Shown here: positions 28,023 through 39,242 of the stretch, in pieces
Layout of the letters: each line of letters starts with the position of its first letter
Numbering within the stretch: the first letter of the stretch is position 1
Assembly (NCBI RefSeq): GCF_000245735.1
Contig: NZ_AHTH01000049.1
Span: 62,001 to 126,000, forward strand
DNA from: Alishewanella jeotgali KCTC 22429
GTDB lineage: Bacteria; Pseudomonadota; Gammaproteobacteria; Enterobacterales; Alteromonadaceae
Length of the DNA: 64,000 bases
Reading direction: 5' to 3'
Translations under genes and position numbers: made by a program
The notes under the pieces: generated by a model
What the model was told of the DNA's origin: nothing
The model's database searches: none
What the model saw: only the letters and a program-made list of their open reading frames with translations

Positions 28023-28058
28023 CCGAGCATCCGGCGCGTTTAGCCGCCGGATGCTCGG
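28023..28058. repeat. Perfect 14-bp stem-loop at the left edge of the repeat block
   Basis: CCGAGCATCCGGCG (28023-28036) pairs exactly with CGCCGGATGCTCGG (28045-28058) over the 8-base loop CGTTTAGC. It starts ten bases after the esterase stop codon. It lacks a T-run, so factor-independent termination is doubtful. Its right arm and loop (GCGCGTTTAGCCGCCGGATGC) recur at 28387-28406 and, inverted, at 37515-37534, so it is part of the repeat family. Confidence 0.8.
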
Positions 28059-28247
28059 AATTAAAATCTGTGTAACGATGACTAACAGTAGCTTTGAGAT
28101 CGGAGCAGCGCCCTTAGCAGGGTAGTAATTTTCTCCACCGGCTTCAAGGATCACATCCCTGTGCCCTTTCAGCCTCCGCAGCATCCCTGCTGCTGTTACG
28201 AAAATTCTACCGCAGCCAAGGGCTTAAAGAGCATCGGTTAGGCATCA
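28033..28247 (-). repeat. Repeat module X, copy 1 (GGGA-hairpin module)
   Basis: First unit of a tandem duplication with an exact 352-bp period. The core 28110-28223 is one large imperfect palindrome: outer arms GCCCTTAGC and GCCAAGGGC, inner arms 28121-28133 and 28200-28211 that pair with one bulge. On the minus strand it encloses two hairpins, GCAGCA-GGGA-TGCTGC (28178-28193) and CACA-GGGA-TGTG (28152-28163). Bases 28101-28228 match copy 2 with one difference. No protein-coding capacity is apparent. Confidence 0.85.
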
Positions 28248-28256
28248 CGACAATAT

Positions 28257-28384
28257 ACTTTTGGCGGCACGATCGTGAACGAGGCGGTAAATGCAGAGTA
28301 CACTTTTCTGGGGACGTCTTTTTCAGGGATGAAAAAGAGGAGCCCCCATGGATGGGTTTACGGCGTGCCCCAGGAAAGTTGTAC
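28257..28384 (+). repeat. Repeat module Y, copy 1 (outer stem with two GGA hairpins)
   Basis: After a conserved lead-in (ACTTTTGGCGGCACGAT), GTACACTTTTCTGGGG (28298-28313) pairs with CCCCAGGAAAGTTGTAC (28368-28384) with one bulge and one wobble. Within it are TCTTTTTCA-GGGA-TGAAAAAGA (28317-28338, nine pairs) and CCCA-TGGA-TGGG (28345-28356). This branched fold has the same plan as module X, which faces the other way. Related copies lie at 37515-37645 (inverted) and 37711-37911. Short open frames through it look spurious. Confidence 0.85.
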
Positions 28385-28599
28385 GGCGCGTTTAGCCGCC
28401 GGATGCACCAGGTTGGAACCTGCGTAACTTTCGATAACAGTAGCTTTTAGAACGGAGCAGCGCCCTTAGCAGGGTAGTAATTTTCTCCACCGGCTTCAAG
28501 GATCACATCCCTGTGCCCTTTCAGCCTCCGCAGCATCCCTGCTGCTGTTACGAAAATTCTACCGCAGCTAAGGGCTTAAACAACATCGGTGCGGCATCA
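28385..28599 (-). repeat. Repeat module X, copy 2
   Basis: Second unit, shifted by exactly 352 bp from copy 1. The outer arms are perfect here: GCCCTTAGC (28462-28470) and GCTAAGGGC (28567-28575). The two GGGA hairpins on the minus strand are at 28504-28515 and 28530-28545 and are identical to those of copy 1. The rest of the gap, to the aldo-keto reductase start at 28673, shows only a possible promoter region and no further repeat. Confidence 0.85.
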
Positions 28600-37425: not shown

Positions 37426-37514
37426 GTTGGTGACGGATTGTTGCAGTAATATTACCGTCATACAGCATGGGTAAGTTAGCTTTCGGTTTGATATGCTGAA
37501 TCGTCTGGATAGGT

Positions 37515-37645
37515 TCATCCGGCGGCTAAACGCGCCGTACAACTTTGCTGGGGCACGCCGTGAACCCATCCCTGGGGGCTCCTCTTTCGCATCCATGCGA
37601 AAGACGTCCCCAGCCAAAGTGTACTATGCATTTACCGCCTCGTTC
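37515..37645 (-). repeat. Repeat module Y, copy 2 (inverted)
   Basis: Read on the minus strand this is a homologue of module Y at 28.3 kb. The outer arms are at 37607-37623 and 37536-37552. The inner hairpins are TCTTTCGCA-TGGA-TGCGAAAGA (37582-37603) and CCCA-GGGA-TGGG (37564-37575). Two base pairs of the first hairpin differ from copy 1 on both sides, keeping the pairing. The motif CATCCGGCGGCTAAACGCGCC flanks it at 37515-37535. The 65 bp to the next module hold nothing recognisable. Confidence 0.85.
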
Positions 37646-37710
37646 GAAAACTGCTAACGCAGCGGCAATGATCATCCGAAGCTGGTGAATGACATTCATG
37701 CCCTCTGATA

Positions 37711-37911
37711 ATACTTTTGGCGGCACGATAGTGAACGAGGTGGTAAGCATTCCGTGCACTTTGTAAGGGAATGTATTTTTCAGGGATGAAAAATGACACA
37801 AATTTGCCGGGAGCAAATTTGAACAGCTTTAGCTGGCCCGTAGGGCAAACTTCAGGATGAAGTTTGTAACCGTACAGGGATGTATTAACAGCGTGTCCCG
37901 TCAAAGTTGTA
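37711..37911 (+). repeat. Repeat module Y, copy 3, expanded with extra GGA hairpins
   Basis: The lead-in ACTTTTGGCGGCACGAT is shared with copy 1. The outer stem is GTGCACTTTG (37753-37762) with CAAAGTTGTAC (37901-37911). Inside are four GGA-loop hairpins: ATTTTTCA-GGGA-TGAAAAAT (37774-37793), CAAATTTGC-CGGGA-GCAAATTTG (37798-37820), CAAACTTCA-GGA-TGAAGTTTG (37845-37865) and GTACA-GGGA-TGTAT (37871-37884). Two small hairpins without GGA are at 37823-37834 and 37835-37845. Bases 37871-37882, GTACAGGGATGT, match the CsrA consensus RUACARGGAUGU at every position. Confidence 0.82.
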
Positions 37912-38006
37912 CGGTGTGCTTGCCGCCGGATGCAACGGGTTTGAATCTGCGTAACTATGTGTAACGGTAGCGTTTAAAATAGAGTGGCTAAGGGCTTAAA
38001 TGACAT
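37912..38006 (+). repeat. Repeat module X, copy 3, lacking its hairpin core
   Basis: The flanks match module X: GCCGCCGGATGCA at the left, CTGCGTAACT in the middle, and GGCTAAGGGCTTAAA with GACATC at the right. The roughly 110-bp palindromic core found in copies 1 and 2 is absent. It ends 30 bp before the chrA start, so it would be in the chrA leader if transcribed from upstream. Confidence 0.7.
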
Positions 38007-38036
38007 CTGCGAGCGAGCAGAATTTAGCAAGGAATA

Positions 38037-39242
38037 ATGATTAAAAACATGACTGAGACATCGACAAATAACTTCTGGAGCATCTTCCGGATTTTCCTGG
38101 TACTGGGCCTGACCTCCTTCGGCGGGCCGGTAGCGCATCTTGGTTATTTTCGTACCGAGTTTGTTGAAAAACGTAAATGGCTGACTGAACGCGACTATGC
38201 TGAACTGGTGGCGTTGTGCCAGTTCTTACCCGGCCCGGCCAGTAGTCAGGTTGGTTTAGCGCTTGGGTTATTACGTGGCCGTTATCGCGGTGCGTTGGCG
38301 GCCTGGCTTGGTTTTACGTTGCCATCTGCCGCGGTGTTGATTGCGTTTAGCCTCAGTTTGGCGATGTTACAAAGCCCGCTGTTGCAGGGGGCCTTGCAGG
38401 GTTTAAAGCTGGTGGCAGTAGCGGTGGTCGCTCATGCGGTTTGGGGGATGGCAAAAAGTTTATGTAATACGGTGTCAAAAGTCAGCATTATGGCGCTAAG
38501 TGCGGTGTTGTTGCTGTTATTTCCGGTTATCTGGTTACAACCTGTAGTGATCCTGCTTGGCGCGCTGCTCGGTTATTTTTTGTTAAAGCAGGAAGCAGCC
38601 GCTGCAGCCTCTGCCTTACCTCTTACCGTGTCGAATACGGCAGCCAAGGCTTACGGTCTGTTATTTCTGGTCTTGTTATTCGGTTTACCGCTAGTGGCGC
38701 AGCTCTATCCCGGTGCTGTTGTCACCATGTTCGATATTTTCTACCGTGCCGGTGCGCTGGTGTTTGGCGGGGGGCATGTGGTGTTGCCATTGTTACAGGC
38801 CGAAGTGGTGCCAACGGATCTCGTCAGCGCTGATAACTTTATTGCCGGTTATGCGGCAGCGCAGGCGGTACCCGGCCCCTTGTTTACCTTTGCCGCTTTT
38901 TTAGGTGCCGCCAGTAATGGTGAACTAAGCGGTGTGTGGGGTGGGGTAGTGGCGCTGCTGGCCATCTTTTTGCCGTCTTTTCTGGTATTGGCTGCGGTAC
39001 TGCCGTACTGGCAGAAACTGCGCGCTTCTAATAACGTCAGTCGCTTAATGGCTGGCGTGGGGGCCAGTGTCACCGGCATTTTGCTGTCAGCGCTATATCA
39101 GCCAATCTGGCAAAGTAGTGTGTTCGGAGCCACTGATTTTGCGCTGGCACTGCTGGGTTTTATTGCGCTGCAATTCTGGCGCCTGCCAGCCTGGTTACTG
39201 GTGCTGGCTGGCGCCCTGATTGGCATGGTAAGGGTGCTGTAG
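38037..39242 (+). CDS. chrA: Chromate transporter, ChrA family
   Basis: A 401-residue protein built of two homologous CHR halves. The first has SFGGPVAHLGYFRTEFVEKR, WLTERDYAELVALCQFLPGP and QVGLALG; the second has VFGGGHVVLPLL, FIAGYAAAQAVPGP and FTFAAFLGA. The paired GGP/GGGH and PGP motifs define ChrA. It exports chromate from the cytoplasm, or a related oxyanion such as sulfate in sensitive strains. AAGGA lies six bases before the ATG. Directly upstream is the hairpin repeat block, which may influence its expression. No chrB regulator is present. Confidence 0.92.
   Translation: MIKNMTETSTNNFWSIFRIFLVLGLTSFGGPVAHLGYFRTEFVEKRKWLTERDYAELVALCQFLPGPASSQVGLALGLLRGRYRGALAAWLGFTLPSAAVLIAFSLSLAMLQSPLLQGALQGLKLVAVAVVAHAVWGMAKSLCNTVSKVSIMALSAVLLLLFPVIWLQPVVILLGALLGYFLLKQEAAAAASALPLTVSNTAAKAYGLLFLVLLFGLPLVAQLYPGAVVTMFDIFYRAGALVFGGGHVVLPLLQAEVVPTDLVSADNFIAGYAAAQAVPGPLFTFAAFLGAASNGELSGVWGGVVALLAIFLPSFLVLAAVLPYWQKLRASNNVSRLMAGVGASVTGILLSALYQPIWQSSVFGATDFALALLGFIALQFWRLPAWLLVLAGALIGMVRVL

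What the first reader, a model, noticed from the sequence alone, without database searches (positions are those of the whole stretch)
37711..37911. Expanded intergenic module made of GGA-loop hairpins, including a perfect CsrA consensus site
Within 160 bp, one outer stem encloses four hairpins whose loops contain GGA or GGGA (37774-37793, 37798-37820, 37845-37865, 37871-37884). Bases 37871-37882 equal the CsrA consensus RUACARGGAUGU at all positions, and 37852-37858 carries CAGGATG, the repeat of CsrB-type decoy RNAs. GGA at hairpin tips is the known recognition element of CsrA/RsmA. A transcript of this region would be a multivalent CsrA ligand, either a sponge RNA or a leader controlling chrA 125 bp downstream. 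The structures are seen; CsrA binding is inference.
Basis: partly seen in the sequence, partly recalled or inferred. Interest (0 to 1): 0.85.

Follow-up and report, generated by a model that had tools for sequence, protein, structure and literature searches.

The report
Scattered RNA-like repeat displaying CsrA-type loops
The spot is one copy of a DNA repeat, scattered through many Gammaproteobacteria, that folds into paired hairpins whose tips show the docking sequence of the global RNA-binding regulator CsrA; it matters because, if transcribed, it could link a mobile repeat to a master control system.

Summary
The hairpins are real (given coordinates are one base low) and far beyond chance. 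They belong to a head-to-head pair of copies of an interspersed intergenic element (about 37516-37933), not to a unique module. The core is 88 nt: an outer stem around two hairpins, each with GGA at its tip, usually 22-24 nt apart. Stems differ between copies yet stay paired (30 of 34 pairs change on both sides); GGA stays at the first tip in 74 of 82 copies, and in 37 of 41 held-out ones, though not a search condition. Copies occur across Gammaproteobacteria: 24 matches here, at least 128 and 127 in one Stenotrophomonas and one Marinobacter. The element resembles Rfam TwoAYGGAY (clan of CsrB/rsm RNAs; CsrA binding predicted in 2014) but misses its cut-off. The right arm carries an extra cassette also found behind csrA and its tRNA genes. 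CsrA binding is therefore plausible but untested. Against an ordinary leader or UTR role: no bias to the mRNA strand, no promoter signal, and two of five chrA loci without the element. A DNA-level, REP-like explanation is the main rival. New variant of a known kind.

The parts
37516..37933 (.). Head-to-head pair of elements bounded by similar inverted ends (GCCGCCGGATG...); ends approximate
   Evidence: Inverted arms 37528-37574 / 37875-37921, 79%; repeated GCCGCCGGATG ends; 59 blastn matches of 37500-38040 in the genome at E <= 1, partial and overlapping pieces included
37537..37624 (-). Basal element core (left arm, GGA strand is minus)
   Evidence: R1 match, 79.7 bits, E 5.9e-20 in the window; fold z = -4.73, 0 of 200 shuffles
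37583..37604 (-). Hairpin 1 of left arm, TCTTTCGCATGGATGCGAAAGA, tip ATGGAT
37565..37576 (-). Hairpin 2 of left arm, CCCAGGGATGGG, tip AGGGAT
   Evidence: sequence; in the family its two outer pairs covary
37625..37753 (.). Spacer between the two cores; no promoter above chance
37754..37912 (+). Expanded element (right arm, GGA strand is plus): outer stem 37754-37763 / 37902-37912
   Evidence: Fold z = -5.32, 0 of 200 shuffles; R1 match 37821-37912, 30.6 bits
37775..37794 (+). GGA hairpin ATTTTTCAGGGATGAAAAAT
37797..37868 (+). Inserted cassette of four hairpins (GGA, none, none, GGA), related to the array behind csrA; ends approximate
   Evidence: Alignment A3, 22 rows: GGA in tips A and D in 22 of 22, in B and C in 0 of 22
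37799..37821 (+). Cassette hairpin A, tip CGGGA
37824..37835 (+). Cassette hairpin B, no GGA
37836..37846 (+). Cassette hairpin C, no GGA
37846..37866 (+). Cassette hairpin D, CAGGATG at the tip
37872..37883 (+). GTACAGGGATGT, full match to the CsrA SELEX consensus; hairpin 2 of right arm
   Evidence: consensus from PMC7652899 (passages)
28298..28384 (+). Another basal element core in the window
   Evidence: R1 match, 74.4 bits
38037..39242 (+). chrA, chromate transporter gene (context)
   Evidence: PF02417, 262.5 bits
35277..37373 (+). S9 family peptidase gene (context; ORF as listed, true start not determined)
   Evidence: PF00326, 155.6 bits

Best explanation
An interspersed, non-coding element, found alone or in head-to-head pairs (tandem or tail-to-tail more rarely), whose GGA strand folds into a three-way junction with two tips of the type A-N-GGA-T/C, mostly 22-24 nt apart. 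Shown: the structure, its covariation, the spacing, conserved GGA, GGA-strand polarity, wide distribution, pairing, and a cassette shared with the csrA neighbourhood. Inferred: when the GGA strand is transcribed, by read-through or antisense transcription, the two tips are bound together by one CsrA dimer, so each transcribed copy is a bivalent CsrA site and the expanded right arm (37754-37912) a multivalent one, adding to a distributed CsrA-binding pool and possibly affecting the carrier RNA. How it spreads is unknown.
For: Covariation in 50 aligned copies: 89.2% of cells paired, 30 of 34 pairs with changes on both sides, score 0.709 against 0.178 shuffled. GGA at the hairpin-1 tip in 74 of 82 copies found by a pattern that did not ask for it, and in 37 of 41 copies of 39 loci not used before. 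GGA-to-GGA spacing 22-24 nt in 60 of the 69 copies (of 81 scanned) where the script found a GGA tip, inside the 10-63 nt that CsrA bridges (PMC7652899, passages). G-U exceeds A-C in the stems, 56 to 25, p = 0.00075, and 46 to 25, p = 0.017, in 25 held-out copies, so the GGA strand is the folding strand. 75 of 76 element-bearing genomes have csrA against 249 of 294 without the element (Fisher p = 3e-4). Cassette GGA kept in 22 of 22 rows, 11 from repeats and 11 from csrA loci. TwoAYGGAY, the nearest Rfam family, sits in clan CL00106 with CsrB and rsmX, and CsrA binding was predicted for it in PMC4333381 (passages).
Against: No strand preference relative to genes: tandem pairs 25 sense, 29 antisense. 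No promoter excess in 15 spacers or around the window copy; on the minus strand cassette hairpin A reads as terminator-like. The base before GGA fits the SELEX R in only 23 of 50 first tips and 30 of 50 second tips, T being common. SELEX hairpins mostly had four or fewer pairs (PMC7652899); stems here are often longer. One csrA-less genome, G175, has 9 matches. The csrA association is not corrected for kinship or genome size. No transcription or binding data exist here. G-U over A-C also fits single-stranded DNA.
Confidence: 0.58

Rival explanations
1. A non-autonomous mobile DNA element comparable to REP/BIME: the GGA strand is recognised as folded single-stranded DNA by a transposase in trans, GGA tips are that enzyme's mark, and any likeness to CsrA sites is coincidence.
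For: Head-to-head arrangement in 29 of 29 neighbour pairs within 500 nt among 104 of the at least 128 Stenotrophomonas matches, and in 15 of 22 in the 80 loci after dropping one overlapping pair; no transcription-strand bias; 24 to at least 128 copies in most genomes counted whole, though 2 in Microbulbifer variabilis; core types exchanged between arms at the orthologous G374 locus. REPs occur in alternating orientation (PMC2817692, passages).
Against: No GT(A/G)G head among conserved columns; the only Y1 transposase match of the own genome (C61:175391-175714) has no R1 match in C61:160001-200000; does not explain GGA in the cassette shared with the csrA locus. Transposases of the other genomes were not searched.
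Confidence: 0.27
2. A stand-alone CsrB-like sponge RNA made from its own promoter at this locus.
For: Several GGA hairpins as in CsrB; consensus site.
Against: CsrB model gives 9.5 bits in the window region and 12.3 at this place in the genome search, against a cut-off of 71; no promoter above chance; the genome has a better CsrB-like candidate at C28:43590-43904, 31.3 bits, also below the cut-off.
Confidence: 0.07
3. A CsrA-responsive leader of chrA.
For: Lies about 125 bp upstream of chrA; elements also lie upstream of chrA in G374 and G380.
Against: No element match in the G372 and G385 chrA loci; in G372 homology begins only at 37992.
Confidence: 0.05
4. Chance or merely thermodynamic structure.
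For: None beyond the small sample in a single window.
Against: 0 of 500 shuffles reach the observed covariation score; recurs across a class.
Confidence: 0.01

Closest known systems
TwoAYGGAY RNA (RF01731)
   Same: Two side-by-side hairpins with A-N-GGA-T/C tips inside an outer stem; reported from Gammaproteobacteria among others (PMC2864571, passage); Rfam clan CL00106; predicted to bind CsrA (PMC4333381, passages)
   Different: R1 cores did not reach its cut-off in the window or in 18 loci tested; conserved GAGC and TTYACRGCGTG joints; interspersed, often paired. The one sub-threshold hit in the genome (C13:6525-6652, 34.3 of 43 bits) is an adjoining module, not an R1 core
CsrB/CsrC and RsmX/Y/Z sponge RNAs
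   Same: Repeated GGA at hairpin tips
   Different: No promoter found, multi-copy, CsrB scores far below cut-off
REP/BIME elements and RAYT transposases
   Same: Many intergenic copies per genome, inverted pairs
   Different: No GT(A/G)G head, 88-nt three-way junction, no linked transposase found in the own genome
RrA/RrB/RrF RNAs of E. coli rrn operons (PMC8144298, abstract and outline)
   Same: CsrA-interacting RNA between two terminators of a stable-RNA operon, like the cassette array behind csrA-tRNA-Ser-Arg-Arg here
   Different: There rRNA operons; here tRNA genes beside csrA, and the cassette also sits in dispersed repeats; binding untested here

Membership tests
TwoAYGGAY (RF01731) | Score at or above the gathering cut-off (43 bits) | tested here: not met
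   Window none; 0 of 18 loci with copies; own genome best 34.3 bits
TwoAYGGAY (RF01731) | Two hairpins with AYGGAY tips within one outer stem | tested here: inconclusive
   Same layout, but the base before GGA is C or T in only 27 of 50 first tips and 20 of 50 second tips, G or A otherwise
TwoAYGGAY (RF01731) | Tandem G-A pairs in one stem (PMC4333381, passages) | tested here: inconclusive
   37 G-A/A-G cells in stem P2 of 50 copies; seen in some copies only
CsrB/Rsm sponge RNA | Several GGA motifs at hairpin tips | tested here: met
CsrB/Rsm sponge RNA | Covariance-model score over cut-off | tested here: not met
   CsrB 9.5 and 12.3 bits, cut-off 71
CsrB/Rsm sponge RNA | Discrete transcript with own promoter | tested here: inconclusive
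   Only consensus scans, at chance level; no RNA data
CsrB/Rsm sponge RNA | Binds and titrates CsrA | not testable with these tools
   needs gel shift or CLIP
REP/BIME | GT(A/G)G head at the foot of a short palindrome | tested here: not met
   No such conserved columns in A1; definition from PMC2817692 passages
REP/BIME | RAYT gene flanked by copies | tested here: not met
   Single Y1_Tnp match in own genome, no R1 match in the 40 kb around it; other genomes not tested
REP/BIME | High copy number, inverted arrangement | tested here: met
   only 24 matches in own genome
chrA leader | Conserved upstream of chrA orthologues | tested here: not met
   Matches in own genome, G374, G380; none in G372, G385

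The most novel reading that the evidence does not exclude
Gammaproteobacterial genomes carry up to a hundred or more dispersed bivalent CsrA sites as a repeat family that exchanges hairpin cassettes with a sponge-like RNA in the csrA-tRNA neighbourhood, so that a mobile repeat sets the size and wiring of the CsrA network.
Probability: 0.27. Interest if true: 0.88.

Novelty: new variant of a known kind. Interest (0 to 1): 0.7.

Why it matters
CsrA activity depends on how many binding sites compete for it. A repeat family offering tens to over a hundred paired sites per genome, with GGA preserved while stems turn over, would be an unrecognised part of that balance and a case of a repeat tuned to a global regulator. 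It also gives a direct test of the 2014 prediction that TwoAYGGAY-like RNAs bind CsrA, and a covariance model for a family that Rfam 15 did not call at its cut-offs in the stretches tested here.

Tried and rejected
Loop census: among 278 perfect hairpins in 400 kb of one contig GGA tips were not prominent, so the signal is tied to this family and is not genome-wide. My first hairpin filter dropped A-GGGA-T tips and was replaced. First drawing of the junction (CGT pairing with ACG) was wrong: columns -32/-7 and -31/-8 covary instead. The first gene caller placed 32 of 84 copies inside ORFs and gave 3 divergent of the 46 with both flanks; the codon-based one placed 1 of 107 inside and gave 13 divergent, 25 convergent, 25 and 29 tandem, 14 with a flank missing, so depletion between divergent genes is suggestive only. 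Bidirectional promoters in spacers (14 of the 16 '-+' pairs plus the window): 1 found, 0.91 expected. Terminator scan around the window copy: 3 sites, 1.0 expected; one is cassette hairpin A on the minus strand, two lie outside the element. Literature: ten searches; none of the titles and abstract beginnings listed describes this repeat, but only open-licence PMC text was searched and lists were capped.

Biases: alignment A1 holds 50 of 84 pattern copies, chosen for GGA at a fixed place and complete flanks, so its invariant tips are partly by selection (its stems are not). By my reading of titles 116 of 119 records are Gammaproteobacteria; L128 and L146 are named only to phylum, and L134, labelled Bacillus subtilis, is probably mislabelled. 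Searches scored at most 11 candidates per genome, at most 150. The csrA cross-table was read by eye from the printed lists. A3 holds 22 rows: of 24 regex hits L081 (chance), L059:8169 and L184 were left out and the window copy added; its rows fall into two close-knit groups, so its shuffle control is generous. One of the 16 '-+' pairs (L129) is two overlapping matches.

Full report
What is there. The four GGA-tipped hairpins exist, one base higher than stated, and the full CsrA SELEX consensus occurs once in the window, in none of 100 shuffles. Delimited by its family the structure is 37754-37912, z = -5.32. It is the right arm of a head-to-head pair; the left arm, 37537-37624 on the minus strand, is a smaller version with two GGA hairpins. 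A third copy is at 28298-28384. A blastn search with 37500-38040 gave 59 matches in the genome at E <= 1, overlapping pieces included.

Copies keep GGA and change stems. In the copies of this genome that I listed, most hairpins with stems of six or more pairs inside the repeat have GGA at the tip on one strand, for example caTGGAtg, caGGGAtg, CGGGA, CTGGA and CAGGA, on stems of quite different sequence. One copy (L058) has the same inner core on a wholly different outer stem.

The family reaches across a class. The 80 listed loci gave 84 copies. Hairpin 1 was not in the pattern, yet GGA lies at its tip in 74 of 82 usable copies and in 37 of 41 from the 39 loci held out. Where the script located it (69 of 81) the two GGAs are 22-24 nt apart in 60.

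Structure. In 50 gap-poor copies 89.2% of cells pair, 30 of 34 pairs change on both sides, covariation score 0.709 against 0.178 (sd 0.010) for shuffles and at most 0.160 when partners are slid. The model is an outer stem P1, stem P2 with tip 1, and stem P3 (GCC/GGC, a TTYAC bulge, then tip 2). G-U outnumbers A-C 56 to 25 (p = 0.00075) and 46 to 25 in 25 held-out copies (p = 0.017), so selection sees the GGA strand folded. This does not tell RNA from single-stranded DNA, and palindrome correction during replication (recalled, untested) could also keep long stems matched; neither explains by itself the conserved GGA tips.

Counts and kinship. Model R1 finds 24 matches in the own genome at E <= 1, 15 of them at 60 bits or more, and at E <= 0.001 at least 128 in Stenotrophomonas maltophilia SJTL3, 127 in Marinobacter denitrificans, 40 in Halomonas socia and 2 in Microbulbifer variabilis. 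In a sample of the class 76 of 370 genomes match at E <= 1e-6; in a sample of the phylum 33 of 397 do at 1e-8, all 33 of the window's class or nearer (how many of the 397 are of that class is not shown). csrA is matched in 324 of 370: 75 of 76 genomes with the element and 249 of 294 without (hypergeometric P = 1.7e-4; kinship and genome size not controlled).

Arrangement. Among 104 Stenotrophomonas copies all 29 neighbour pairs within 500 nt are left-minus, right-plus; in the 80 loci 15 such (after dropping one overlapping match), 4 tandem, 3 tail-to-tail. The window pair is of the first kind. Copies are intergenic (1 of 107 inside a called gene) with no bias to the sense strand: 25 sense, 29 antisense in tandem gene pairs, 25 convergent, 13 divergent (home-made gene caller; a cruder one had put 32 of 84 inside ORFs). 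So the repeat was not placed to serve one neighbouring mRNA.

The expanded cassette. Between the two core hairpins the right arm carries four hairpins, the first and last with GGA. Related cassettes stand behind csrA, tRNA-Ser and two tRNA-Arg genes, between two terminator-like hairpins (by eye): three tandem units in the own genome and, by regex, at least one in 10 of the 20 genus loci fetched, own included, of 26 genomes searched. In 22 aligned cassettes, 11 repeat-borne and 11 from csrA loci, GGA is at tips A and D in all 22, at B and C in none, and 10 of 24 pairs change on both sides (one of the five covariation measures, further pair types, was below the shuffles). The array begins and ends like the tRNA-Arg acceptor stem (by eye). 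This shared cassette is the best local link to CsrA.

Known relatives. No Rfam family reaches its cut-off in the window. TwoAYGGAY gives 34.3 of 43 bits on a neighbouring module in the same genome and nothing at cut-off in 18 loci with copies; Rfam places it in clan CL00106 with CsrB and rsmX. PMC4333381 predicted CsrA binding for it (passages); PMC2864571 listed it from human gut, Gammaproteobacteria and Clostridiales (passage). So the element works like, and is probably kin to, TwoAYGGAY, but is not filed as a member.

Leader of chrA? At the G374 locus a pair stands in the same place with core types exchanged; G380 has four matches upstream of chrA; G372 and G385 have none. No promoter exceeds chance. 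I reject a specific chrA leader.

Verdict. Real, conserved and ordinary in place (a dispersed repeat), but unusual in content: paired GGA tips kept at near-fixed spacing through stem turnover. CsrA binding is the most likely reason (0.58), a DNA-level mobile element the main rival (0.27). The host genus, probably Rheinheimera, is inferred from the nearest named copies.

Noticed in passing
L001:2200-2480 (G000:C21, behind csrA and tRNA-Ser-Arg-Arg); relatives L208, L210-L216, L219: GGA-hairpin cassettes between two terminator-like hairpins, starting and ending like the tRNA-Arg acceptor stem (by eye); a candidate CsrA-binding RNA in csrA's own neighbourhood. rsmX model 25.4 bits, cut-off 56.
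   Followed up: partly
G000:C28:43590-43904 (L202): Likely CsrB homologue, many GGA on the minus strand, 31.3 bits against a cut-off of 71.
   Followed up: no
G000:C13:6525-6652 (L063); kin at window 28032-28247 and 28384-28599: A further repeat module with two GGA hairpins that gives the sub-threshold TwoAYGGAY match; in the window a related module flanks the 28.3-kb copy as a direct repeat.
   Followed up: partly
L209 (G374:C12): The array behind csrA is cut short and followed directly by an element of this family, as if one had replaced it.
   Followed up: no
L191 upstream of chrA (G372): Other hairpins with CATCCATG tips in a different complex repeat, so more such families may exist.
   Followed up: no
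window 37799-37821, minus strand: Read on the minus strand, cassette hairpin A is followed by a T-rich tail and scores as terminator-like.
   Followed up: no
L134: A contig labelled Bacillus subtilis carries a typical copy, probably a mislabelled or contaminated record.
   Followed up: no
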